Source: Caulobacteraceae bacterium
Lineage (GTDB): Bacteria > Pseudomonadota > Alphaproteobacteria > Caulobacterales > Caulobacteraceae
Assembly: GCA_947475845.1 (NCBI GenBank)
Contig: CANJMO010000016.1
Location: 1 to 43,727 of the forward strand
Direction of reading: 5' to 3'
Length of the DNA stretch: 43,727 nt
A program made the position numbers and the translations under genes. A model generated the notes under the pieces. The model made no database searches. It was not told the DNA's origin and saw nothing but the letters and a program-made list of their open reading frames with translations. Shown one piece after another: positions 2,705-40,850 of the stretch (its first letter is position 1; the number at the start of each line of letters is the position of its first letter).

Positions 2705-4513
2705 ATGCCAGACGGCGGCTCCGCCCTGTCGGCCGCCTTTCTCAACGTCACCCGCTCCCTGAGCGGGCGGGCCTGGCGCGAGCGGCCGGCCGACGCCGGT
2801 TTAGCCCGCGCTCACGCCATGAGACATGGCCTGTCCGAGCCCCTGGCCCGGGCCCTGGCCGCGCGCGGCGTGGGCGAAGGTCAGGCGGCGGACTTTCTGG
2901 CGCCGACGCTGAAGGCGCTGTTTCCGGACCCGTCGTCGTTCCTCGACATGGACTGCGCCGCCGAGATCCTGATCGACGCGATCGAGCGCGACCGGCCGAT
3001 GGTAGTGTTCGCCGACTACGACGTCGACGGCGCCTCCAGCGCCGCCTTGCTGGTCCGCTGGTTCAGGGCCATGGGCAAGACCCTGCCGATCTATGTGCCC
3101 GACCGCATCCTGGAGGGCTACGGGCCGAGCCCCGCCGCTTTCCGACGCCTGCGCGCCGAGGGGGCCGAGCTGGTGGTCACCGTCGATTGCGGCGCCGCCG
3201 CCTATGACGCCATCAAGACCGCCGCCGAGGTCGGGCTGGAAGTGGTGGTGGTCGATCACCACCTGATGCGCGAGGACCCGCCGGCCGCCGCCGCCGTGGT
3301 CAATCCCAACCGGCCCGGCTGCAACTCGGGGCAGGGCAACCTGGCCGCCGCCGGGGTCGCCTTCGTCCTGCTGGCCGCGCTGAATCGCGAGGCAAGGCGC
3401 AGAGGCCTGTTCGCCGGGCGGCCGGAGCCGGACCTGCGCCAGTGGCTCGATCTGGCCGCCATGGGCGCGATCTGCGATGTGACCTCCTTGACCGGCTTCA
3501 ACCGCGCCCTGGCGTCTCTGGGGCTGAAGACCATGTCGGCCTGGGCCAATCCCGGACTGAACGCCCTGATGCAGGTGGCCAAGGCCGAGGGGCCCGCGGG
3601 GGTGTTCCACGCCGGGTTCATCCTGGGCCCGCGCATCAACGCGGGAGGGCGCATCGGCCGGGCCGATCTGGGCGCGCGCCTGCTGTCCACCGACGATCCC
3701 GCCGAGGCCCTGGCCCTGGCCGAGGAACTGGACGCGCTCAATATCTCGCGCAAGGACGTCGAGCGCGAGGTCACCGAACAGGCCATCGTCGCCGTCGAGA
3801 AGGCCGACAGCCGTCCGGGCGACAGCCCGGCGATCGTGGTGTCGGGCGAAGGCTGGCATCCCGGCGTGGTTGGCATCGTGGCGGGACGGCTGCGCGAGCG
3901 ATACCGCAAGCCCGTGGTGGTGATCGGCGTCGATCCGGTGCTGCGGATAGGCAAGGGCTCGGGCCGTTCACAACCGGGGGTCAATCTGGGCCGAGCGATC
4001 CAGGCTGCGTTCGAGGACGGGCTGCTGCTGGCGGGGGGCGGGCACGCCATGGCCGCCGGCCTGACCGTGCGCGACGAGGGCATCGACGCCTTCCGCGGCT
4101 TCCTGCTCGACAAGCTGATCCACGAGAGCGCCGCCGCCGCCGAACTCGACGTGGTGGAGATCGACGCCCTGATCAGCCCGCGCGGCGCCGACCGGCAGCT
4201 GTTTCAGGACTTCCAGCGGCTGACGCCGTTCGGCCCCGGCAATCCCGAGCCGATGTTCGCCGCCGCCCATGTCGTGGTCGATTATCCGCAGGCCATGCGC
4301 GGCGGTCATATCCGCTGCACCCTGACCGATGGGGCAGGGGCTAAGCTGAAGGCGATCGCCTGGCGCGCGGAGGACACCGACCTGGGCCGCCGTCTGCTCG
4401 CGGGGGGCGGCGGGCTTCATGTCGCGGGCCGCCTGAAAGCGGACGACTGGAACGGCCGCGAGGGCGTACAGTTAGAGATCGAGGACGCTGCGGACCCACG
4501 CGCGTCCAACTGA
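2705..4513 (+). CDS. recJ: Single-stranded-DNA-specific exonuclease RecJ
   Basis: RecJ is the 5'-3' single-strand exonuclease used in recombinational repair (RecF pathway), mismatch repair and processing of stalled forks. The 602-residue product carries the DHH phosphoesterase signatures: FADYDVDGASSAALL near residue 100, TVDCGAAA near 160, and the DHH motif in VVVVDHHL near 182. LGPRINAGGRIGRAD and the DHHA1 motif GGGHAMAAG follow, with an OB-fold region at the C terminus. The start one base after glpX fixes the ATG at 2705. After its stop come about 80 untranslated bases and a tRNA gene, so it is probably the last gene of the hom-glpX-recJ unit. Confidence 0.95.
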   Translation: MPDGGSALSAAFLNVTRSLSGRAWRERPADAGLARAHAMRHGLSEPLARALAARGVGEGQAADFLAPTLKALFPDPSSFLDMDCAAEILIDAIERDRPMVVFADYDVDGASSAALLVRWFRAMGKTLPIYVPDRILEGYGPSPAAFRRLRAEGAELVVTVDCGAAAYDAIKTAAEVGLEVVVVDHHLMREDPPAAAAVVNPNRPGCNSGQGNLAAAGVAFVLLAALNREARRRGLFAGRPEPDLRQWLDLAAMGAICDVTSLTGFNRALASLGLKTMSAWANPGLNALMQVAKAEGPAGVFHAGFILGPRINAGGRIGRADLGARLLSTDDPAEALALAEELDALNISRKDVEREVTEQAIVAVEKADSRPGDSPAIVVSGEGWHPGVVGIVAGRLRERYRKPVVVIGVDPVLRIGKGSGRSQPGVNLGRAIQAAFEDGLLLAGGGHAMAAGLTVRDEGIDAFRGFLLDKLIHESAAAAELDVVEIDALISPRGADRQLFQDFQRLTPFGPGNPEPMFAAAHVVVDYPQAMRGGHIRCTLTDGAGAKLKAIAWRAEDTDLGRRLLAGGGGLHVAGRLKADDWNGREGVQLEIEDAADPRASN

Positions 4514-29321: not shown

Positions 29322-29561
29322 TTATGCGTGGGTCTTGGCCGCCTCGAAGATAAGCGTCGAGCCTTCGCTCGCGCTTGAGATCAGCCGATAGCCCTCGCTC
29401 GAGATGAAATGAGGGACGTCGATCCTGGCCAGGGGATCGTCGGCCAACAGGCGCACGACCTGCCCCGGGGCGGCGCGGTCCAGCGCGCGGCGCAGGCGCA
29501 AGGTGGTGACCGGGCAGCGGTGGCCTCGCGCATCGACCAGCACGGCCTCGGAATCACTCAT
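29322..29561 (-). CDS. TusA/SirA family sulfur-carrier-like protein
   Basis: A 79-residue protein of the SirA/TusA family. The conserved Cys-Pro of the fold is present at residues 16-17 (DARGHRCPVTTLRLRRAL), followed by PGQVVRLLADDPLARIDVPHFI and a C-terminal strand LIFEAAK. TusA relays sulfur in tRNA thiolation, while other members take part in redox or envelope processes. The specific partner is not evident. It is divergent from the Ku-fusion gene across 60 bases. The stop lies 85 bases upstream of popA on the same strand. Confidence 0.88.
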   Translation of the reverse strand: MSDSEAVLVDARGHRCPVTTLRLRRALDRAAPGQVVRLLADDPLARIDVPHFISSEGYRLISSASEGSTLIFEAAKTHA

Positions 29562-29621
29562 CTGAACAAAGCCCTCGCCAGCCGCGTTGTCCTGAAAACT
29601 GTGTCATCCAACGAGGCTATC

Positions 29622-30902
29622 ATGGCGACCCGTCCCACGTGGCAAGGACATCTGCGGCTGTCGCTCGTGAGCTGTCCCGTGGCTCTCTATACCGCCACGT
29701 CCGCCACCGGCGAGGTCCATTTCAACCTCCTGCACAAGGAGACCATGAACCGTATCCGCATGATCCCGACCGATCCGGAGACCGGGCCGGTGGAGCGCGC
29801 CGATCTGGTCAAGGGCTTCGAAGTCGACAAGGGCCGCTATGTCGTGATCACCGACGACGAGATCAAGGCGGTGCGGCTGGAGAGCACCCGCACCATCGAT
29901 ATCGAGCGCTTCGTCGACGCGACGGAGATCGACCGGCTCTATTGGAACAACCCCTACTACCTGGTCCCCGACGGCAAGATCGCGGCCGAGGCTTTCGCCG
30001 TCATTCGCGAGGCCATGTCTCAGTCGGGCAAGCTGGCCCTGGGCCGGGTGGTGCTGCACCAGCGCGAGCGGCTGATGGCGCTGGAGCCGCGGGACGAGGG
30101 CATCGTCGCCTACAGTTTGCGGACCTATGACGAGGTACGCCAGCCCAAGGACTATTTCGACGCCATTCCGGCCGCCAAGCCCGACGCCAAGATGATCGAC
30201 ATCGCTCGCAAGATCATCGAGCAGTTGGAAGGCCCGTTCGACCCGACCCAGTTCGACGACCGCTACGCGCTGGCGGTGCTCGACCGGGCCATGGTGATGC
30301 CGGACGGGGTCGAAGTCCGCCTGCCGTTCGCGTTCGGCACCACGGTAGAGACCGTTCCCGCCGATGTGCCCTATGTCCATGTGAGCCCGCGGGCGCGAGA
30401 GAGGTGGGGGGCGCGGTTGGGGGCGGGCAGGGACCGGATACGGGTGGGCCTGGCGTGGTCGGGCAACCCGGCACAGGCCACCGATCGTTACCGCAGCATG
30501 CCGTTCGAGGCTCTGCGGCCGCTGCTGGATGTGGACGCCGCCTTTTACTCCTTGCAGGTGAACTATCGTGACGGTGAACTGGCGGCTCTGGAAGCGGATG
30601 GGCGTATCACGAGTTTCCACAGTGAGATCAGTGACTTCATGGACACTGCCGCGTTGATCGAACAGCTCGATCTGGTGGTGGCCGTGGACACTTCGGCCGC
30701 GCACCTGACCGTCGCCCTGGGCAAGACCATGTGGCTGATGCTCGCCCACCGGCCGGACTACCGCTGGCACAACGGGCGCGAGGACAGTCCGTGGTACCCG
30801 ACCGCGCGCCTGTTCCTACAATCGGAGCAGGGCGATTGGACCAGTGTGATCGACCGGATCAGAATCCAGCTGAGCGAGGTGATCGGCGCGGCTCCCAGGT
30901 AG
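29622..30902 (+). CDS. ku: Chimeric ORF: bacterial Ku domain fused to a glycosyltransferase-type C-terminal domain
   Basis: A single uninterrupted frame of 426 residues. Residues 1 to ~215 are a near-complete bacterial Ku protein, the DNA-end binder of non-homologous end joining: TWQGHLRLSLVSCPVALY, NRIRMIPTDPETGPVERADLVKGF, LESTRTIDIERFVD, ALGRVVLHQRERLMALEPR, GPFDPTQFDDRY. Ku normally ends about 15-50 residues after that point with a basic tail (E-A-L..K-K). Here, from ~216-234 on, the sequence instead reads LPFAFGTTVETVPADVPYV, RIRVGLAWSGNP, DRYRSMPFEALRPLL, DLVVAVDTSAAHLTVALGK. That is the C-terminal half of TPR-linked glycosyltransferase (GT9/GT41-like) proteins. No ligD is in the window. 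The start ATG 29622 begins MATRPTWQGH; the 71-residue upstream extension overlaps tusA antisense. Confidence 0.85.
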   Translation: MATRPTWQGHLRLSLVSCPVALYTATSATGEVHFNLLHKETMNRIRMIPTDPETGPVERADLVKGFEVDKGRYVVITDDEIKAVRLESTRTIDIERFVDATEIDRLYWNNPYYLVPDGKIAAEAFAVIREAMSQSGKLALGRVVLHQRERLMALEPRDEGIVAYSLRTYDEVRQPKDYFDAIPAAKPDAKMIDIARKIIEQLEGPFDPTQFDDRYALAVLDRAMVMPDGVEVRLPFAFGTTVETVPADVPYVHVSPRARERWGARLGAGRDRIRVGLAWSGNPAQATDRYRSMPFEALRPLLDVDAAFYSLQVNYRDGELAALEADGRITSFHSEISDFMDTAALIEQLDLVVAVDTSAAHLTVALGKTMWLMLAHRPDYRWHNGREDSPWYPTARLFLQSEQGDWTSVIDRIRIQLSEVIGAAPR

Positions 30903-30951: not shown

Positions 30952-30989
30952 AGGTGGAAAAATCCGTCGGCCTTTGCTATCAGCCGCCC

Positions 30990-31655
30990 ATGAGCGAGAC
31001 CGCGCGACCAGTCCTGACGCCACCCGACGGGCACAAGAAGGTCCTGCTTCATTCGTGCTGCGCGCCATGTTCGGGCGAGGTGATGGAGGCCATGCTGGCG
31101 TCCGGCGTCGAGTACACCATCTTCTTCTACAACCCGAACATCCACCCTGAGCGCGAGTACCTGCTGCGCAAGGACGAGAATGTCCGTTTCGCCGACAAGC
31201 ACGGCATCGCCTTCATCGACGCGGACTACGACAAGGACAACTGGTTCGAGCGGGCCCGAGGCATGGAGCGCGAACCGGAGCGCGGCATCCGCTGCACCAT
31301 GTGCTTCGACATGCGCTTCGAGCGCACAGCCCTCTATGCCCACGAGAACGGCTTCCCGGTGATCACCAGCTCGCTTGGGATTTCGCGCTGGAAGGACATG
31401 AACCAGATCAACGACTGCGGCCATCGCGCCGCCGGCCGTTACGAGGGGCTGAGCTACTGGGACTACAACTGGCGCAAGGGCGGCGGTTCGGCGCGGATGA
31501 TCGAGATCAGCAAGCGCGAGGAATTCTACCAGCAGGAGTACTGCGGCTGCGTCTACTCCCTGCGCGACGCCAACAATTATCGGCGCGCCGTCGGGCGTCC
31601 GACGATCGAGATCGGGACCCAGTTCTACAAGAACACCCCCGCGGACGGCGAATAG
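30990..31655 (+). CDS. queH: Epoxyqueuosine reductase QueH
   Basis: QueH reduces epoxyqueuosine to queuosine in the wobble position of GUN-decoding tRNAs and replaces QueG. The 221-residue product has the cysteine sets of the family: HSCCAPC (C23, C24, C27), RCTMCF (C102, C105) and EYCGC (C185, C187), ligands for an Fe-S cluster and a second metal. The intervening text [17 protein letters not shown] and [11 protein letters not shown] is typical. The ATG at 30990 fits the family start better than the in-frame GTG at 30954, which lies in the inverted-repeat region. It is the last core gene before the accessory region. Confidence 0.95.
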
Positions 31656-31954
31656 GCGAGCGCCTGGCCTTGAGTCCACAAGACTTGGCCGAAATCCGGA
31701 CATCGGCTTAACCTACCGAGAGCGCCGACCCCGGTGGTGTCAGTCCAACGCGAACTTGTCTCCATCAAGGCGCAGTCCGCCCAATCCCGCCGGGGTTGCT
31801 GGCATTGACGCCACCTCCGGGCCCGAAGGCCGTGGCGACATGAGACTAGGCGCTAGCGCCTGGTGACCAATGCGGTGAAACTGCCTGAGTTGAGCGACAT
31901 CATGGCCTCCATTCTCATGAGCTGATCAACTTTCCTCCCAGGAGGCATAAGCGG
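31656..31954 (+). promoter_or_regulatory. Intergenic region upstream of the patatin operon
   Basis: About 300 bases with no credible gene. It holds one copy of an imperfect direct repeat (31741-31767, see separate entry) and a perfect 14-base palindrome AGGCGCTAGCGCCT (31848-31861), a possible operator about 100 bases before the operon. A strong ribosome-binding site AGGAGG (31940-31945) lies nine bases before the TTG start. No confident -35/-10 pair was found. Confidence 0.45.
31741..31767 (+). repeat. Imperfect 27-base direct repeat, left copy
   Basis: This copy matches the stretch at 37105-37131 at 23 of 27 positions, including the uninterrupted core AACTTGTCTCCAT. Both are on the plus strand and each is preceded by GGTGGTG a few bases upstream. 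The two copies bracket the patatin operon, the broken DUF4010 gene, the structured segment and the IS3 remnant (about 5.4 kb). They may be ends of a lost mobile element. Confidence 0.55.
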
Positions 31955-33118
31955 TTGAGTCGATCACGTTCGAATGGAGGGCTTTGGTCCGGGGCGACGC
32001 GGCTCCCGGCGCCCAAGCAGGCCTTGGCCAACATCAACGGATTTGACGGTGTTCGGCTCAGCTTCGGTCAGGCCGAAGACGCGCTCGAAGCGGAGGCTGA
32101 CCGTCTTTCGCTGCCCCGCTCGAACTTGGACGGCGGCGACCTTGACCTCCTGGCGATCTCGGGCGGCGCGTCCGGCGGGGCCTTTGGAGCCGGCGTTCTC
32201 ACGGGTCTGACCTTGGCCGGGCGACGGCCGACCTTCGCTATCGTGACCGGCGTGAGCACCGGTGCGCTTATCGCGCCCTTCGCCTTCCTCGGGTCGGCGT
32301 GGGACGGTCGCTTGCGCGATGCCTACACGGGAGGTCACGCTGAGGAGTCCTTTGGATTGGCGGCCCTGTCGCCCATCCTGGATGGCGCCCTGTTCCGGGC
32401 GGAGGCCCTGGAGCGTCTCGTCCATCCATTTGTAGACGACGAAATGGTGGCCGCGGTCGCCGCTCAGCACCGGCTGGGCCGGCGTCTCTTGGTCGCGACC
32501 ACCGATCTTGATCGAGAGGCGCCCTGCATCTGGGACATGGGGGCCATCGCGGTTCGCGGCGGCAGCGAGGCCACATCGATGTTCCGCGAGGTGCTGATCG
32601 CATCGGCCAGCCTGCCAGGCCTATTTCCGCCTCGGCGGTTCGAAGTCGAGGCGAACGGCGAAACCTTCGAGGAGATGCATGTGGACGGTGGGGTCGCCGC
32701 GCCTCTGTTCATCATGCCCGAGGCCCTGATGCATTGGCAGAAGCTCGGGCAGCGAATGCGTCGGGGCCGGATTTACGTGCTCATCAATACGGTCCTTGAC
32801 GCTTCGCCGCGGACGACCCCGCCAAACCTTCCCTCTATTCTGCTGCGCAGCTTCGACACCATGCTGAGGGTGTCCTACCGCCAGGCGTTGAACGTGGCGG
32901 TGACCTTCAGCGCGGCGCACAATCTGCCCCTCAGCGTGGCCTCCATCCCTGACGCGCCGCCCGGAGAGGAGACTGGAAGCATGTTGAGTTTCGACACTGG
33001 AACGATGAAGCGGACCTTCGACGCGGCGGTCGATGCGGCCAAACGCGAGGATTTCTGGAAGACGCCGACCGCACGTCAGGACCTGTGGTCCGACGTCCGG
33101 GACCTGTTCCAAGTCTGA
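31955..33118 (+). CDS. Patatin-like phospholipase
   Basis: A 387-residue lipid acyl hydrolase of the patatin family. The glycine-rich oxyanion loop is GGASGGAFGAG (70-80), the nucleophile is S101 in the GxSxG elbow GVSTG (99-103), and the dyad aspartate is D244 in the DGG motif (244-246); all key residues are present. There is no signal peptide, so it is probably cytoplasmic and acts on the inner-membrane face. A TTG start with AGGAGG nine bases upstream is used. Its TGA overlaps the next ATG (TGATG), opening a four-gene operon with an unknown membrane protein, a phospholipase D-like protein and ExoD. Preferred lipid unknown. Confidence 0.9.
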   Translation: MSRSRSNGGLWSGATRLPAPKQALANINGFDGVRLSFGQAEDALEAEADRLSLPRSNLDGGDLDLLAISGGASGGAFGAGVLTGLTLAGRRPTFAIVTGVSTGALIAPFAFLGSAWDGRLRDAYTGGHAEESFGLAALSPILDGALFRAEALERLVHPFVDDEMVAAVAAQHRLGRRLLVATTDLDREAPCIWDMGAIAVRGGSEATSMFREVLIASASLPGLFPPRRFEVEANGETFEEMHVDGGVAAPLFIMPEALMHWQKLGQRMRRGRIYVLINTVLDASPRTTPPNLPSILLRSFDTMLRVSYRQALNVAVTFSAAHNLPLSVASIPDAPPGEETGSMLSFDTGTMKRTFDAAVDAAKREDFWKTPTARQDLWSDVRDLFQV

Positions 33119-33765
33119 TGGTCGATGCGCTCGGCCATGGACGGGGTGGGAACCGGATTGGGTTTTGGTCGCGCGGCCCCACACGGCAACGTCCGATCGA
33201 ACTGAGGATCCAGAGCGTCGGCCAGCTGTTCCACACGCTCGATCCCCTGCCGTTCCGCGAACGGGACCTGGACGCCAGCGTCGAAGAATATGTTGTCGGA
33301 GGGGCGGGCGAGATGGGCGGCGAGCACCCCATCACCATCCTCGTCCGGCTGCCCGCAGCTGAGGCGCAGGGCGAGTCCGCCGCGCATATTGGCGACGGCT
33401 TTCGCAACTACTTCGCCTATCGGGCCGACGTGCTCAGTTGGGACCTGCGCAACCTGTTTCAAACCGGCCGCGTCTCGGCCCTCGTCGGCCTGTGCGCGCT
33501 TGGGGTCAGCATCATCCTCGGTCGCCTCAGCGAGGCGGTCCTCGGCGGCGGCTATTTCGCCCGGTTTCTCGACGAAGGTCTGATCATCGTCGGCTGGGTG
33601 GCCAATTGGCGGCCGATCGAGATCTTCCTCTACGATTGGTGGCCGATCGCGCGCCGGCGGCGTCTGTACCGTCGCTTGGCGCAAGCTGGCGTCGAGGTCG
33701 TGGTGGAGCCAGGGAGCGGCGATGCTCCGGCAGCCGCTCCCGGCGCCGCGCCTCTGCCCCTATGA
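33118..33765 (+). CDS. Unknown membrane protein of the patatin/PLD operon
   Basis: I do not recognise this 215-residue family. The N-terminal half (residues ~25-115) is soluble, with a regular alternation suggesting beta structure (IELRIQSVGQLFHTLDPLPF, HPITILVRLP). Two hydrophobic segments follow: ~118-136 (SALVGLCALGVSIILG) and ~153-172 (EGLIIVGWVANWRPIEIFL). The latter runs into a WW and a very basic patch (ARRRRLYRRL) that should face the cytoplasm. The end is an Ala/Pro-rich tail. Both ends overlap neighbours (TGATG with the lipase, ATGA with the PLD gene), so it is almost certainly made in fixed proportion with them and could anchor them at the membrane. Confidence 0.8.
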   Translation: MVDALGHGRGGNRIGFWSRGPTRQRPIELRIQSVGQLFHTLDPLPFRERDLDASVEEYVVGGAGEMGGEHPITILVRLPAAEAQGESAAHIGDGFRNYFAYRADVLSWDLRNLFQTGRVSALVGLCALGVSIILGRLSEAVLGGGYFARFLDEGLIIVGWVANWRPIEIFLYDWWPIARRRRLYRRLAQAGVEVVVEPGSGDAPAAAPGAAPLPL

Positions 33766-35186
33766 CGTTCTTTTCGCCGGGCCAATCCTGCTGGAGAGCC
33801 GCACGCGCCGGCCGTGTGGGCCTGCTCGTCGACAACCAAGCCTATTTCGATGCGCTCTACGAGGCGTTGCACGCTGCCGAACGGTCCATCCTGATCCTGG
33901 GCTGGGCGTTCGATCCACGGACCCGCTTGTCCCCCGATGGCAAGGAGGGTCCGGCCGATCCGGACGAGATCGGCCGGATCCTGATCGATCTTTGCCGGGC
34001 CCGGCCAGAGTTGGCGGCGCGGATTCTGGTCTGGAAGTCGCAGCTTGGGATCAACGGCTTTCAGGATATCCGGGGGCACCGCGCGAAACGCTGGTTCGCC
34101 AACACGCCCGTGGTGTTCCGAGAGGCGCACGACACGCCCTTTGGCGCCTGCCATCACCAGAAGCTCGTGGTGATCGATGATCGGCTGGCCTTTTGCGGTG
34201 GGGGCGACATCGTCACCAACCGCTGGGACAGCGAGCAGCATCTGCACGCCGAACCACGCCGCATCCTGCCCGACGGCGGCCGGCATCCGGCGCGTCATGA
34301 GGTGATGATGCTAGTAGAGGGGCAGACTGCAGCGTCCCTGGGGGAGTTGTTCCGCGAGCGGTGGCGCAACGCCACCGGCGAACATCTTGTCCCTTCGCTG
34401 CCAGCGGCGGCGGCGGATCCCTGGCCGAAAAGCGTCCCGGTCCGGCTGTCGGACGTCGAGGTGGTGATCGCCCGAACCCAGCCGGGGTGGCGGCAGCGGC
34501 CTCTCGTCCAGGAAATTCGGCGATTGACCGAAGACTGCATCGCCGGCGCGCGGAGGACGATCTATCTCGAAAATCAGTATTTCGCCTCCGCCCGCGTGAC
34601 CGACGCCTTGGCTGTCCGTCTCGCCGAACAGGACGGCCCCGAAATCGTCATGGTCCTGACCGGCCGGGCGCCGTCCTGGTTCGACCGGTTGACGATGGAT
34701 CGCGCGCGGAATCCCCTGATCGAACGGCTGCGGCGGGCGGACCGGTACGGACGGTTCCGGGCCTATTCGCCTCGCACGTCGGCGGGGGCAAAAATCATCG
34801 TCCACGCCAAGGTGGCCGTGGTCGATGACCGTATCGCGCGAATCGGCTCCGCCAACCTGAATAACCGCTCCGAGGGCTTCGACACCGAGTGCGACCTAGC
34901 GATTGAGGCCCGGGACGAAATCGCAAGCCGCGGCATTGCCGATTTTCGCCATCGGCTGCTGGGACACTACCTTGCGGTCGCGCCGGACCGCGTCCGCCAG
35001 GCTATCGAGATGGCCGGCGGGTTGATCGGGGCCATCGACAGCTTGAACGGGGCAGGGCGGCTGACGCCGTTCCCGAGCGTGCGGCCGATCTGGTTCGATA
35101 GGCTCGTTTCGGCCTACCGCCTTGGTGACCCGCGAGACGCGAAGGAAAGCTGGCGCCCGCTGGCGAGAGCTGACGGCGATGGCTGA
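33762..35186 (+). CDS. Phospholipase D-family protein (two HKD motifs)
   Basis: A 474-residue member of the PLD superfamily. Both catalytic HxKx4D motifs are intact: HQKLVVID (H132, K134, D139), followed by a GGGDI block, and HAKVAVVD (H348, K350, D355), followed by IGSANLNNRS. That makes it a complete two-lobe enzyme rather than a single-motif nuclease. It could be a phospholipase D, a phosphatidyltransferase or a cardiolipin-synthase-like enzyme. The spacing and WAFDP start resemble soluble bacterial PLDs rather than Cls, which has N-terminal membrane helices absent here. The ATG overlaps the preceding stop (ATGA), and its own TGA overlaps the ExoD start region by eight bases. Confidence 0.9.
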   Translation: MTFFSPGQSCWRAARAGRVGLLVDNQAYFDALYEALHAAERSILILGWAFDPRTRLSPDGKEGPADPDEIGRILIDLCRARPELAARILVWKSQLGINGFQDIRGHRAKRWFANTPVVFREAHDTPFGACHHQKLVVIDDRLAFCGGGDIVTNRWDSEQHLHAEPRRILPDGGRHPARHEVMMLVEGQTAASLGELFRERWRNATGEHLVPSLPAAAADPWPKSVPVRLSDVEVVIARTQPGWRQRPLVQEIRRLTEDCIAGARRTIYLENQYFASARVTDALAVRLAEQDGPEIVMVLTGRAPSWFDRLTMDRARNPLIERLRRADRYGRFRAYSPRTSAGAKIIVHAKVAVVDDRIARIGSANLNNRSEGFDTECDLAIEARDEIASRGIADFRHRLLGHYLAVAPDRVRQAIEMAGGLIGAIDSLNGAGRLTPFPSVRPIWFDRLVSAYRLGDPRDAKESWRPLARADGDG

Positions 35187-35808
35187 GCCGATGGCGCCCG
35201 AGGCGCATTTGTCGTTGTCGAGTCTGTTGCTGGTGCTCGCGGATCGGTCGCAGGGATCGGTTAGCGTCGCCCAAATCGTTGACCATTTCGGACCGCGCGC
35301 CTTTGGGGCCGTCCTGTTCGTCTTCGCCATTCCAAATCTGGCGCCGTTGCCCCCGGGCGGCACGACTGTCCTCGGCTTGCCGCTCCTGATCCTCGCCCCT
35401 CAGCTCGCGTTCGGGAGCAAGCGCCCCTGGATCCCGAAGGCGCTCGGACGCCTGAGCATCGACGGCCCATTGCTGGCGGGCGTCTGTCGTCGCGCGGTAC
35501 CGTGGGTGGCCCGCGGCGAGCGCCTGACCACCCATCGCCTTGGGTTCATGTTCGGCCTCGTCGGCGACGCGGGCATCGGCGTCGTCTGCAGCCTGCTGGC
35601 GGCGGTACTGATCCTGCCTATTCCCCTTGGGAATATACTCCCCACCGTGGCCATCGCGATCCTGGCGTTCAGCCTCGTCCAGCGCGACGGATTGCTCGCC
35701 ATTGCCGGCTATGCGCTGGCGTTGGCGAGTTTGGGGCTGCTCGTCCTCAGCGGGGCCCTGGTCGTGGAGGCGGTGGCGCGGTTGGGCGCGATCACCGGCC
35801 TCTGGTGA
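35179..35808 (+). CDS. ExoD family membrane protein
   Basis: A 209-residue integral membrane protein of the ExoD family. It has the N-terminal helix LSSLLLVLADRSQG, IVDHFGPRAFGAVLFVFAIPNLAPLPPGGTT, LPLLILAPQLAFGSKRPWIPK, and about four to five hydrophobic segments in total. ExoD was named from a Rhizobium exopolysaccharide mutant, and its molecular role is still poorly understood. The start ATG 35179 lies inside the end of the PLD gene, giving translational coupling. It is the last gene of the operon; the following gene is a broken MgtC/DUF4010 gene. Confidence 0.88.
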   Translation: MAEPMAPEAHLSLSSLLLVLADRSQGSVSVAQIVDHFGPRAFGAVLFVFAIPNLAPLPPGGTTVLGLPLLILAPQLAFGSKRPWIPKALGRLSIDGPLLAGVCRRAVPWVARGERLTTHRLGFMFGLVGDAGIGVVCSLLAAVLILPIPLGNILPTVAIAILAFSLVQRDGLLAIAGYALALASLGLLVLSGALVVEAVARLGAITGLW

Positions 35809-37421: not shown

Positions 37422-38243
37422 TTGAGGCTGAACCTCGTCGAGGGACTATGGGTCGGCGCCTGCATGGCGAGCGTATCTCTTCCTGCCTTGGCGCAGGAGT
37501 TGACCCCGGAACAGCAGGCGGCCAGGGCCGCTCGTCTCAGCGAGGAGATGAAGACCTGGGAGCCGGTCGCGCCGCCCACCGATCCGAGGGATTTCACGGG
37601 CCTGTGGGAAGTCCCCATCCCTCTGGTCGGCCTGCGTCAAACGGACGGCTCGCAGCCCCCGTTCACCGCTCAGGAGGCCAAGGACGTTCAGTTCCATATC
37701 GACTCGGCGAGAGCGGGTCAGGTGATCACCGATGCTTCGAGCCAGTGCTTTCCCCACGGCGTGCCGCGGCTGACTACCGCGCCCTATCCCCTGCGCTTCG
37801 CACACGCTCCGGGAATGGTCCTCATGCTGCACGAGGTGGCGCATAACGTCCGCTACATCCATCTCGACCGCCCGGCTCCGGCGAACGAGCCGTACACCTT
37901 TCTCGGCTATTCCACCGGCCATTGGGATGGGAACACTCTGGTGGTCGAAACCACCCACCTGAACCAGGACACCCTCTTGGATGGCAATATCTCGCACGGG
38001 CCCCGCCTGAAGGTCACCGAGCGGTGGACGAAGGTGAAGACGGCGTCGGGCAATACCCAACTGCAAAATGTCATCACCATCGAAGACCCGGACCACTTCA
38101 CCCGGCCATGGTCGACCCAGCGCAACTTCGCTTTTCGCTCCGACATAGCCAACAGCGCCGGGTCGGAAGGCCTGGTCGAGTACTCCTGTGAGGAGAACAA
38201 CCGCAACCAGCCTGGGGCCGACAAGATCGTGACGGCCCGATGA
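37422..38243 (+). CDS. Exported protein of unknown family (paralogue A)
   Basis: A 273-residue protein with a signal peptide (ending SLPALAQ near residue 25) and a Gln/Ala-rich start to the mature part. It belongs with the two paralogues nearby through shared blocks: DFTGLWEVP, CFPHGVPRL.TAPYPLRF, LMLHEVAHNVRYIHL, YSTGHWDGNTLVVETTHLNQ.TLLDG, ISHGPRLKVTERW and ITIEDPDHFTRPWS. The repeated His/Trp/Glu positions suggest a beta-rich ligand-binding or lipocalin-like fold, but I know no function. The TTG start has a GGGAGG site. Its TGA overlaps the ATG of paralogue B (ATGA). Confidence 0.82.
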   Translation: MRLNLVEGLWVGACMASVSLPALAQELTPEQQAARAARLSEEMKTWEPVAPPTDPRDFTGLWEVPIPLVGLRQTDGSQPPFTAQEAKDVQFHIDSARAGQVITDASSQCFPHGVPRLTTAPYPLRFAHAPGMVLMLHEVAHNVRYIHLDRPAPANEPYTFLGYSTGHWDGNTLVVETTHLNQDTLLDGNISHGPRLKVTERWTKVKTASGNTQLQNVITIEDPDHFTRPWSTQRNFAFRSDIANSAGSEGLVEYSCEENNRNQPGADKIVTAR

Positions 38244-38968
38244 GCAGCAGGTTCGCCTTGATCGCGCTGGCCGCTTGCGCCCTTGCCGCCCTTGATTGCG
38301 CCGGCGCGTCGGCCAAGGTCGATGCCTGGGCCGACGTTCCCTTGGCCCAGCGTCCCGTCGCCGGCACGCCCAACATCGGCGGCGTGTGGCAGATGCCGCG
38401 CAGGATCGTCGCCCTAAAGACCGTGGATGGTCGCGAACCGCCGCTCCTGCCGGCGGCTAAGGCGCAGTACGCCCGCAACATCGCCGCGCTGAAGGCCGAC
38501 CCGGGCGCGGACCCGATTAGCGGTTGCCTGATGCACGGCCTGCCGAGGTTGCTCTACGCGCCATATCCCGTGCTGATCAGTCAGGAACGGGACCGCATCA
38601 ATTTCGTCCACGAGGCCAACCACACGTTCCGCATCGTGACCCTGACCAAGCCTTTGCCGAAGGTCGATGAGGACCTGGATCCCCAGTGGCTGGGACATTC
38701 GGCCGGGCGATGGGAAGGACGCACCCTTGTCATCGACACCGTCGGCTTCAACGACAAGACCTGGCTGGACTATTCAGGCCTGCCGCACAGCGACCAACTC
38801 AGGATCCAGGAGCGTTACAAACTCGCTGGCCATGATCGGATTAAGGGTGAGATCACCATCACCGATCCGAGAACGTTCGCGGCTCCGTGGACCACTTCAT
38901 TCGTCCTGACACGCAAGCCCAACTACGACCTGAAGGAGTCAGTTTGCGCTCGCGACCACCGGATGTAG
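38240..38968 (+). CDS. Exported protein of unknown family (paralogue B)
   Basis: A 242-residue protein with a signal peptide to about residue 28 (GASA-K). It shares the family blocks: NIGGVWQMPRR, CLMHGLPRLLYAPYPVL, FVHEANHTFRIVTLT, LGHSAGRWEGRTLVIDTVGFN..TWLD, LPHSDQLRIQERY and ITITDPRTFAAPWTTSFVL. The conserved mature cysteine in CLMHG is also present in the other copies. The start overlaps paralogue A by four bases, so the two probably function together, perhaps as a heteromer. No catalytic signature was recognised. Confidence 0.82.
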   Translation: MSSRFALIALAACALAALDCAGASAKVDAWADVPLAQRPVAGTPNIGGVWQMPRRIVALKTVDGREPPLLPAAKAQYARNIAALKADPGADPISGCLMHGLPRLLYAPYPVLISQERDRINFVHEANHTFRIVTLTKPLPKVDEDLDPQWLGHSAGRWEGRTLVIDTVGFNDKTWLDYSGLPHSDQLRIQERYKLAGHDRIKGEITITDPRTFAAPWTTSFVLTRKPNYDLKESVCARDHRM

Positions 38969-39865: not shown

Positions 39866-40645
39866 TCAGCGGCCGGGCAGGGCCACGGTGGTCTTGCCGT
39901 TCTCGTCCGGGCGGTTGCGGTCGTGGTCGCAGAAGTACTCCATGATCCGGAAGCCCGGCATCTGCTTCATGGTCACGGTGTTGGTCCAGGGCGCGGTGAA
40001 GGTCTTGGGGTCGTCGTAGGTGCGGATCATCTCCAGGATCGGGCCCCGGCGGCGGATCCGCTCGACGACGTGCAGGTCGGGCGAATGGGGCACGCCGCCG
40101 ATGGTGGATTCCTCGTTCAGGCCGATGGTGTCGACCACCAGGGTGTCGCCCTCCCAATGGGCGATGGAGTCGCCGAAGTAGCCGGGCAGGGGATCCTCGT
40201 CGTGCTTGTTGGCCAGGCGGATGATGCGGAAGACGTTGAACTCCTCGAACAGCACGGTGATCTGCTTCTGCTCGGGAGACTCGATGATCTGCATCAGCAG
40301 CGGCGGCGGCGGCGACATCGACCCCGGCGTGCCGGTCGGCAGGCAGCGGGCCTTGGGCTCGGCGAAGGGATGTCCGGCGGCGGCGTCCTTGGCGCGCTTG
40401 TTCATGATCTCCTGGGCCCAGGGCAGGATGCCGACGGGCCTCCCGTCCGGGCCGATGCGCGGCTGGCGGGTCGCGGCGGCGATGTTGCCGATGCCGATCT
40501 TGCCGAAGTTTTCGTCGAAGATGGTGCTGACCCAGACCCCGCCGATGCTTCCGGGGCCAGACGCGGGCTGCGCGGCCACGGACCCAGTCACACAGGCGGC
40601 CGCGGCGGCGGCGACAAGACCAATACGGATCGACTTGATCGACAT
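39866..40645 (-). CDS. Exported protein of unknown family (paralogue C)
   Basis: A 259-residue protein with a signal peptide (MSIKSIRIGLVAAAAAACVT...VAAQ) and a GGAGGGG ribosome-binding site. It shares the family blocks of A and B: SIGGVWVSTIFDE, CLPTGTPGSM, LFEEFNVFRIIRL, YFGDSIAHWEGDTLVVDTIGLNEESTIGG, VPHSPDLHVVERI and IRTYDDPKTFTAPWTNTVTM. It has an additional middle segment (EIMNKRAKDAAAGHPFAEPKAR). It ends EYFCDHDRNRPDENGK, like the CEENNRNQPGADK end of A. It is inverted relative to A and B and converges on the mosaic pseudogenes, seven bases from them. Function unknown. Confidence 0.84.
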   Translation of the reverse strand: MSIKSIRIGLVAAAAAACVTGSVAAQPASGPGSIGGVWVSTIFDENFGKIGIGNIAAATRQPRIGPDGRPVGILPWAQEIMNKRAKDAAAGHPFAEPKARCLPTGTPGSMSPPPPLLMQIIESPEQKQITVLFEEFNVFRIIRLANKHDEDPLPGYFGDSIAHWEGDTLVVDTIGLNEESTIGGVPHSPDLHVVERIRRRGPILEMIRTYDDPKTFTAPWTNTVTMKQMPGFRIMEYFCDHDRNRPDENGKTTVALPGR

Positions 40646-40850
40646 ACGCCCCTCCGACGGCAATCTCGCCGGCTGGTCTAAGCGGACCGCTGGCGCCTGG
40701 GGCTTGGCGGCCCTTTGGAGGATGTTTTCACCTCGGTGGGCGCTCGGCAACCGGCATGACTGCCCGGCGCGCGCGCAGGCGCGGTCTGGACTTCGTCCAT
40801 GGCAGGCCTAGTGTCTCCAGCAGAAGACGACCTGACCAAGGGGGAAGACG

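What the first reader, a model, noticed from the sequence alone, without database searches (positions are those of the whole stretch)
31955..35808. Overlapping four-gene operon: patatin lipase, unknown membrane protein, two-HKD phospholipase D and ExoD
All four genes overlap at their junctions (TGATG, ATGA, and an 8-base overlap), which implies fixed co-translation. Two lipid-cleaving enzyme families that attack different bonds, both with complete catalytic residues (S101/D244; H132-K134-D139 and H348-K350-D355), are joined to a two-helix protein of no family I know and to an ExoD membrane protein. I know of no named system with this content. Candidate roles are phospholipid remodelling at the inner membrane or an abortive, membrane-damaging defence module. 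Its place among mobile-element debris fits a transferable accessory module.
Basis: partly seen in the sequence, partly recalled or inferred. Interest (0 to 1): 0.8.

Follow-up and report, generated by a model that had tools for sequence, protein, structure and literature searches.

The report
Probable low-oxygen membrane-lipid gene module
A cluster of overlapping bacterial genes, apparently transferred in, joins two lipid-cutting enzymes to two inner-membrane proteins, one from a widespread unnamed family; relatives suggest it helps remodel the cell membrane when oxygen runs low, rather than acting as a weapon against viruses.

Summary
In detail: patatin, an unmodelled two-helix membrane protein ("mid"), two-HKD PLD and ExoD overlap exactly as described, with the stated catalytic residues. 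A fifth gene, a decayed MgtC/DUF4010, follows. A same-genus genome keeps the genes to the left but lacks the operon. The operon PLD is not the genome's vertically inherited copy.

The exact four-gene order was found nowhere else in the loci examined. Pairs recur: patatin-PLD in two other Caulobacteraceae genomes, mid-PLD in one Caulobacterales MAG, mid-ExoD in one alphaproteobacterium, patatin-MgtC once, mid-MgtC in 10 of 92. The PLDs of these patatin/mid-linked loci form one clade (100/99); they were found through patatin or mid, so that linkage is ascertained.

mid has no Pfam model. Its genes are enriched beside universal stress proteins, cation P-type ATPases and MgtC/DUF4010 (13, 11, 10 of 92 loci; 0 of 114 control loci). 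Perfect TTGA-N6-TCAA (FNR/FixK) sites lie upstream of 10 of 91; shuffles give 0.25. The window has a one-mismatch site 65 bp before the operon.

Best reading: an FNR/FixK-type, low-oxygen membrane-remodelling module. Defence is not supported. Regulation here and the lipid chemistry are inferred.

The parts
31890..31903 (.). FNR/FixK-like site TTGAGCGACATCAT, one mismatch to TTGA-N6-TCAA, 65 bp before the operon start
   Evidence: 13 sites with at most one mismatch in the window, 5.33 expected; chance 0.023 in shuffles of the 130 bp upstream. Suggestive only.
31940..31945 (+). Shine-Dalgarno-like AGGAGG before the TTG start
   Evidence: sequence
31955..33118 (+). Patatin-like phospholipase, 387 aa, no signal peptide or lipobox seen; Ser101/Asp244
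   Evidence: the 19 close relatives read (59-71% identity) also show no hydrophobic leader (by eye); lipobox-like motif in 20 of 28 more distant class relatives
33118..33765 (+). mid: unmodelled membrane protein, 215 aa, small N-terminal alpha/beta part and long two-helix hairpin
33762..35186 (+). Two-HKD phospholipase D family protein, 474 aa; H132/K134/D139 and H348/K350/D355
35179..35808 (+). ExoD family membrane protein, 209 aa
35901..36430 (+). Decayed MgtC/DUF4010 gene: two pieces in different frames, start and C-terminal half missing
   Evidence: MgtC/DUF4010 near mid in other genomes
30954..31655 (+). QueH, left flank shared with a same-genus genome that lacks the operon

Best explanation
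The cluster is a horizontally acquired, probably translationally coupled operon that remodels and stabilises the inner membrane under low oxygen or related stress, probably switched on by an FNR/FixK-type regulator. Proposed working: oxygen loss activates a CRP/FNR-family protein (the genome encodes one that looks FixK-type), which binds the site 65 bp upstream. Patatin removes acyl chains and the PLD hydrolyses or transphosphatidylates headgroups, both at the cytoplasmic face; mid and ExoD, and once an MgtC/DUF4010 protein, act in the membrane on ion permeability or lipid arrangement. Shown: gene content, overlaps, catalytic motifs, absence in congeners, PLD apart from the vertical copy, pairwise recurrence, stress and ion-transport neighbours of mid, FNR/FixK sites before some mid relatives and before one patatin-PLD operon. 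Inferred: regulation in this genome, lipid substrates, cooperation of the proteins.
For: Patatin followed directly by PLD in L284 and L288; operon-type PLDs (window, L131, L284, L288) form one clade 100/99, while the genome's other PLD groups with its congener's at 100/100. mid-PLD with ATGA overlap in L131; mid-ExoD adjacent in L137. Within 1.5 kb of 92 mid genes: Usp 13, cation P-type ATPase 11, MgtC/DUF4010 10; 0, 0, 0 beside 114 control loci. Pfam tally of 150 of 159 neighbour proteins: Usp 10, E1-E2 ATPase 8, DUF4010 6, MgtC 6, CBS 4. Perfect TTGA-N6-TCAA within 300 bp upstream of 10 of 91 mid genes (shuffle mean 0.25, maximum 2 in 60), other spacings and palindromes 0-2; controls 0 of 114. 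L288's patatin-PLD operon has a perfect site upstream and cytochrome b561, pyrimidine-phosphorylase and PRPP-synthetase genes downstream; the last two also follow mid in Bradyrhizobium. L284's pair too is followed by cytochrome b561 (opposite strand). CRP/FNR-family regulator in the genome.
Against: The window site has one mismatch and could be chance (0.023). 81 of 91 mid genes have no perfect site; 7 of 92 downstream stretches have one, so part of the signal may belong to neighbouring genes. L131 and L284 show no site at their operons, and 72 of 75 patatin loci have none with at most one mismatch; only 5 of 75 patatin loci have any of nine island markers within 6 kb. Most examined patatin, PLD and ExoD relatives have none of the other operon genes beside them. 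The PLD-clade members were found through patatin or mid, so their linkage is ascertained. No enzyme activity, lipid substrate or expression was tested. The MgtC gene is broken, so the locus may be decaying.
Confidence: 0.5

Rival explanations
1. A chance patchwork: accessory envelope genes gathered in one strain by transfer and read as one transcript, with no joint function.
For: Exact order seen only here; mid mostly stands among varied neighbours; patatin-PLD in only 2 of 75 patatin loci; the fifth gene is broken.
Against: The operon-type PLD clade occurs with patatin or mid in three other genomes; tight overlaps at every junction; several pairs recur.
Confidence: 0.33
2. A membrane-damaging anti-phage (abortive) module in which patatin and PLD kill the cell when triggered.
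For: Patatin and PLD-fold proteins occur in CBASS and DISARM (recalled); PADLOC matches to a phospholipase effector (1.8e-8) and DrmC (5.6e-9).
Against: Curated NCBIfam cut-offs missed by far; of ten neighbouring ORFs only two weak PADLOC hits, PtuA 8e-5 on a Sel1-repeat protein and SNc+LTD 1.9e-5 on a nuclease homologue; no defence family among the 25 families most often found beside mid; no mid relative in phage records or viral contigs; no sensor or nucleotide cyclase in the operon.
Confidence: 0.05
3. An ion or pH homeostasis unit centred on mid, ExoD and MgtC/DUF4010, with the phospholipases as passengers.
For: mid is enriched beside cation P-type ATPases and MgtC/DUF4010; an exoD mutant of S. 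meliloti is alkali sensitive (PMC3233446, passages).
Against: In L284 and L288 the phospholipase pair stands without mid, ExoD or MgtC nearby, so it is not a mere passenger of that unit.
Confidence: 0.12

Closest known systems
FNR/FixK-regulated microoxia gene islands of Alphaproteobacteria (e.g. Bradyrhizobium FixK2 regulon)
   Same: Universal stress, CBS, MlaE and host-attachment type genes are among those raised in microoxia (PMC6515984, passages); genes of these kinds lie near mid relatives; same DNA site.
   Different: No patatin-PLD-ExoD operon was seen in the passages read; the window site is imperfect and induction is untested.
Bacterial PLD-type cardiolipin synthases (ClsB) and the family PLD beside an EEP gene
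   Same: Two HKD motifs; ClsB model matched weakly (38.2 bits).
   Different: Far under the ClsB cut-off of 281 bits; no relative of the EEP gene in the window, unlike 43 of 57 PLD loci (the gene is Exo_endo_phos by Pfam in L210).
Patatin-like phospholipases of Alphaproteobacteria
   Same: Ser-Asp dyad, Pfam Patatin; match in 156 of 259 Caulobacteraceae genomes, the window's included.
   Different: Belongs to a clade without the lipobox common in more distant relatives and sits in an operon.
ExoD (PF06055)
   Same: Full-length Pfam match.
   Different: Linked to mid and PLD; no exopolysaccharide gene was recognised among the neighbouring ORFs scanned.
CBASS patatin effectors and DISARM DrmC
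   Same: Similarity at superfamily level.
   Different: Scores under the curated cut-offs and no accompanying defence genes recognised.

Membership tests
Patatin-like phospholipase | Pfam Patatin over cut-off; GxSxG and DGG/A dyad | tested here: met
   70.2 bits against 27.7; Ser101, Asp244
PLD superfamily, two-HKD | Two complete HxKx4D motifs and PLD domain over cut-off | tested here: met
Cardiolipin synthase ClsB | NCBIfam equivalog score over cut-off | tested here: not met
   38.2 against 281 bits
ExoD family | Pfam ExoD over cut-off over the full domain | tested here: met
   162 against 23.8 bits, residues 14-189
FNR/FixK regulon member | TTGA-N6-TCAA site at promoter distance | tested here: inconclusive
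   One-mismatch site 65 bp upstream, chance 0.023; perfect sites in 10 of 91 mid relatives and at L288
FNR/FixK regulon member | FNR/FixK-type regulator encoded in the genome | tested here: met
   PF13545 hit and TIETVSR recognition helix in the 219-aa protein of L259; the recognition-helix motif is recalled, the assignment is by eye
FNR/FixK regulon member | Induction under low oxygen | not testable with these tools
   no expression data
CBASS patatin effector | NCBIfam CBASS_lipase over cut-off | tested here: not met
   16.9 against 200 bits
CBASS patatin effector | Nucleotide cyclase beside the effector | tested here: not met
   none recognised by Pfam or PADLOC among the neighbouring ORFs scanned
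DISARM DrmC | DrmC over cut-off with drmA/drmB | tested here: not met
   41 against 133 bits; no DISARM partner among the ten neighbouring ORFs scanned
Any Pfam family (mid) | Pfam match of mid or relatives | tested here: not met
   0 for mid at E 1; among 24 members six families matched by one member each, best 0.0028

The most novel reading that the evidence does not exclude
A new oxygen-controlled membrane-remodelling system: an ancestral patatin-mid-PLD operon in Caulobacteraceae, from which genomes have lost parts, in which a previously unmodelled membrane protein family (mid) recruits or gates two phospholipases at the inner membrane during oxygen limitation.
Probability: 0.25. Interest if true: 0.65.

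Novelty: new variant of a known kind. Interest (0 to 1): 0.45.

Why it matters
If right, it links oxygen sensing to phospholipid editing in Alphaproteobacteria, where FixK/FNR regulons are known but contain genes without known function.

Tried and rejected
Rejected: a fixed four-gene system; defence; phage or viral origin of mid (no match in phages; 43 pattern matches, none a relative). Rejected after a closer look: my first thought that the window patatin had lost its signal peptide; the 19 close relatives read also lack one.

Led nowhere: fold comparison of mid. Foldseek best E 0.25; VIA-align best Z 7.9, rows covering mainly the long helices, so no fold claim is made; the N-terminal part was not predicted alone. 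PDB sequence search for mid gave only weak troponin C hits (E 0.011 and worse), read as chance. EcfG-type promoter pattern: 1 of 92 mid against 9 of 114 controls, so not supported. Paper searches: ExoD with cardiolipin 0 papers; universal stress protein with DUF4010 0; of 205 papers holding two of ExoD/phospholipase D/patatin the 20 listed showed nothing on ExoD. No claim is made beyond these searches.

Limits: upstream regions of controls are set from the match start, not the gene start. The 80 mid loci are the best of 553. Only 29 ExoD loci and 28 class patatin loci, the best of longer lists, were read for neighbours. In the neighbour tally 9 of 159 proteins were dropped to fit 150: likely wrong calls, far-off genes, a transposase fragment, and some only to fit. 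Neighbour genes were called by a simple GC-frame script, so some are wrong. mid loci were de-replicated at about 85% for the counts; relatedness remains, so the Fisher values are only a guide.

Full report
Observation. Pfam names patatin, PLD and ExoD; mid has no Pfam match, and NCBIfam gives it only one weak hit (E 0.066). A decayed MgtC/DUF4010 gene follows ExoD: parts matching residues 44-150 and 151-220 of a 426-residue relative are found in different frames; the rest was not found.

Accessory nature. The window otherwise looks chromosomal: homoserine dehydrogenase, GlpX, RecJ, RecG, a TRCF/Mfd-type helicase, MipA, Ku and QueH. In G600 (same genus) the Mfd-end, MipA, MipA, GGDEF, Ku and QueH genes are kept, but QueH is followed at once by a different gene (about 33% identical to three ORFs right of the operon) and the operon is absent. 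The comparison is one-sided: a gene further along in G600 has its relative on another contig of the window's genome (C30), so the right end of the island is not defined and a rearrangement is possible. Neither of two same-genus genomes has mid or a patatin match; one of them is only 79% complete. The genome's second PLD groups with a congener's PLD (100/99), whereas the operon PLD groups with L131 (100/100) inside another part of the family. The operon PLD is therefore most simply a transferred copy. No transposase, integrase or phage family matched among 36 window ORFs or pieces scanned.

Recurrence. mid matches in 16 of 289 class genomes and 16 of 259 family genomes, the window's included, in 26 plasmid records, no phage record and no viral contig. 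In genome contigs 553 relatives were confirmed and the best 80 kept. Among those 80 with up to 10 kb flanks: patatin 0, PLD 1 (L131), ExoD 1 (L137), MgtC/DUF4010 12; in 24 loci fetched before: patatin, PLD and ExoD 0, MgtC/DUF4010 1 (at least two loci are in both sets). Two of the 24, from Azospirillum and Skermanella, carry an annotated patatin four genes from mid that the window patatin did not find. In 15 other Caulobacteraceae mid loci with about 1.5 kb flanks, some of them in the 80 as well, PLD is adjacent once (L239, judged the same genome as L131 from identical percentages) and MgtC/DUF4010 three times. From the other side: none of 57 other PLD loci, 28 class patatin loci and 29 ExoD loci shows another operon member within about 1.5 kb. 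But among 75 patatin loci of Caulobacteraceae with up to 6 kb flanks, PLD follows directly in L284 and L288 and MgtC/DUF4010 in L294. The PLDs of window, L131, L284 and L288 form one clade, 100/99. These members were found through patatin or mid, so the linkage is ascertained. The usual family PLD has an EEP (Exo_endo_phos) gene close by in 43 of 57 loci; the window has none.

mid and its regulation. In a 78-sequence alignment P43, P45, L51, F99, G117, V161, W164, L171, W174 and P176 are invariant. The model has pLDDT 87 and two long helices without a convincing match. Within 1.5 kb of 92 mid genes: Usp 13, cation P-type ATPase 11, MgtC/DUF4010 10; controls 0, 0, 0 of 114 (Fisher p 1.7e-5, 9.9e-5, 2.4e-4, not corrected for relatedness). 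A Pfam tally of 150 neighbour proteins agrees. TTGA-N6-TCAA stands within 300 bp upstream of 10 of 91 mid genes against 0.25 in shuffles, and in 0 of 114 controls; in the -160 to -31 stretch 9 of 90 are perfect and 15 of 90 have at most one mismatch, shuffles 1.62. Against: 81 of 91 have no perfect site, and 7 of 92 downstream stretches have one, so some sites may serve neighbours.

The window operon. A one-mismatch site lies 65 bp upstream, and the genome has a CRP/FNR-family protein with an FNR/FixK-like recognition helix (helix motif recalled). In L288 the patatin-PLD pair has a perfect site upstream and cytochrome b561, pyrimidine-phosphorylase and PRPP-synthetase genes downstream; relatives of the last two follow mid in Bradyrhizobium, and cytochrome b561 is among mid's neighbour families (3 of 150). 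L284's pair is followed by a cytochrome b561 gene on the other strand but shows no site. L294's patatin-MgtC pair lies beside host-attachment and beta-CASP/MBL genes. Against: only 5 of 75 patatin loci have any of nine island markers within 6 kb, and 3 of 75 a site with at most one mismatch; L131 has no site.

Defence. PADLOC matches patatin to a phospholipase effector (1.8e-8) and the PLD to DrmC (5.6e-9), but the curated NCBIfam cut-offs are missed by far and no defence partner was recognised beside the operon.

Literature. PMC6515984 (passages) lists universal stress, CBS, host-attachment, Hsp20 and MlaE proteins among those raised in microoxia in Bradyrhizobium. PMC2908626 (passages) states that predicted FNR, FixK and DNR sites are virtually identical in Alphaproteobacteria. 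PMC3233446 (passages) reports an exoD mutant of S. meliloti sensitive to alkali with less EPS I. Other listings were seen only as listings.

Conclusion. The exact operon is unique in what was examined, but it is made of parts that recur in pairs, and several of those pairs share a low-oxygen and stress setting. The likeliest role is membrane remodelling under oxygen limitation; lipid chemistry and regulation in this genome remain inferred.

Noticed in passing
window 29409-30902: Ku followed in frame by a glycosyltransferase-9-like tail; in the same-genus locus L256 these are two separate genes, so a deletion may have fused them.
   Followed up: partly
window 37422-38243, 38240-38968, 39866-40750: Three related ORFs of about 240-290 aa without Pfam match; L256:10794-11645, which follows QueH in the same-genus genome, is a further relative.
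   Followed up: partly
L042-L070 and L210-L237: Alphaproteobacterial PLDs have an EEP-type gene close by in 43 of 57 loci, as recalled for E. coli ybhP-ybhO; a conserved pairing of unknown meaning.
   Followed up: partly
L017, L288, L294 and mid loci: A mix-and-match set of universal stress, MBL-fold, pyrimidine-phosphorylase, PRPP-synthetase, P-type ATPase and MgtC/DUF4010 genes recurs around mid, in part with FNR/FixK sites.
   Followed up: partly
L020, L023: In Azospirillum and Skermanella plasmids mid follows a patatin-GntP-RND efflux series, in Skermanella with VacJ and TamB-type genes behind it.
   Followed up: no
window 3488-3501: A perfect TTGA-N6-TCAA inside a RecJ-type ORF; sites with at most one mismatch are more frequent in the window (13) than in shuffles (5.33).
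   Followed up: no
G007 (loci L074, L092, L098, L099): One genome of the class carries four patatin relatives on four contigs.
   Followed up: no
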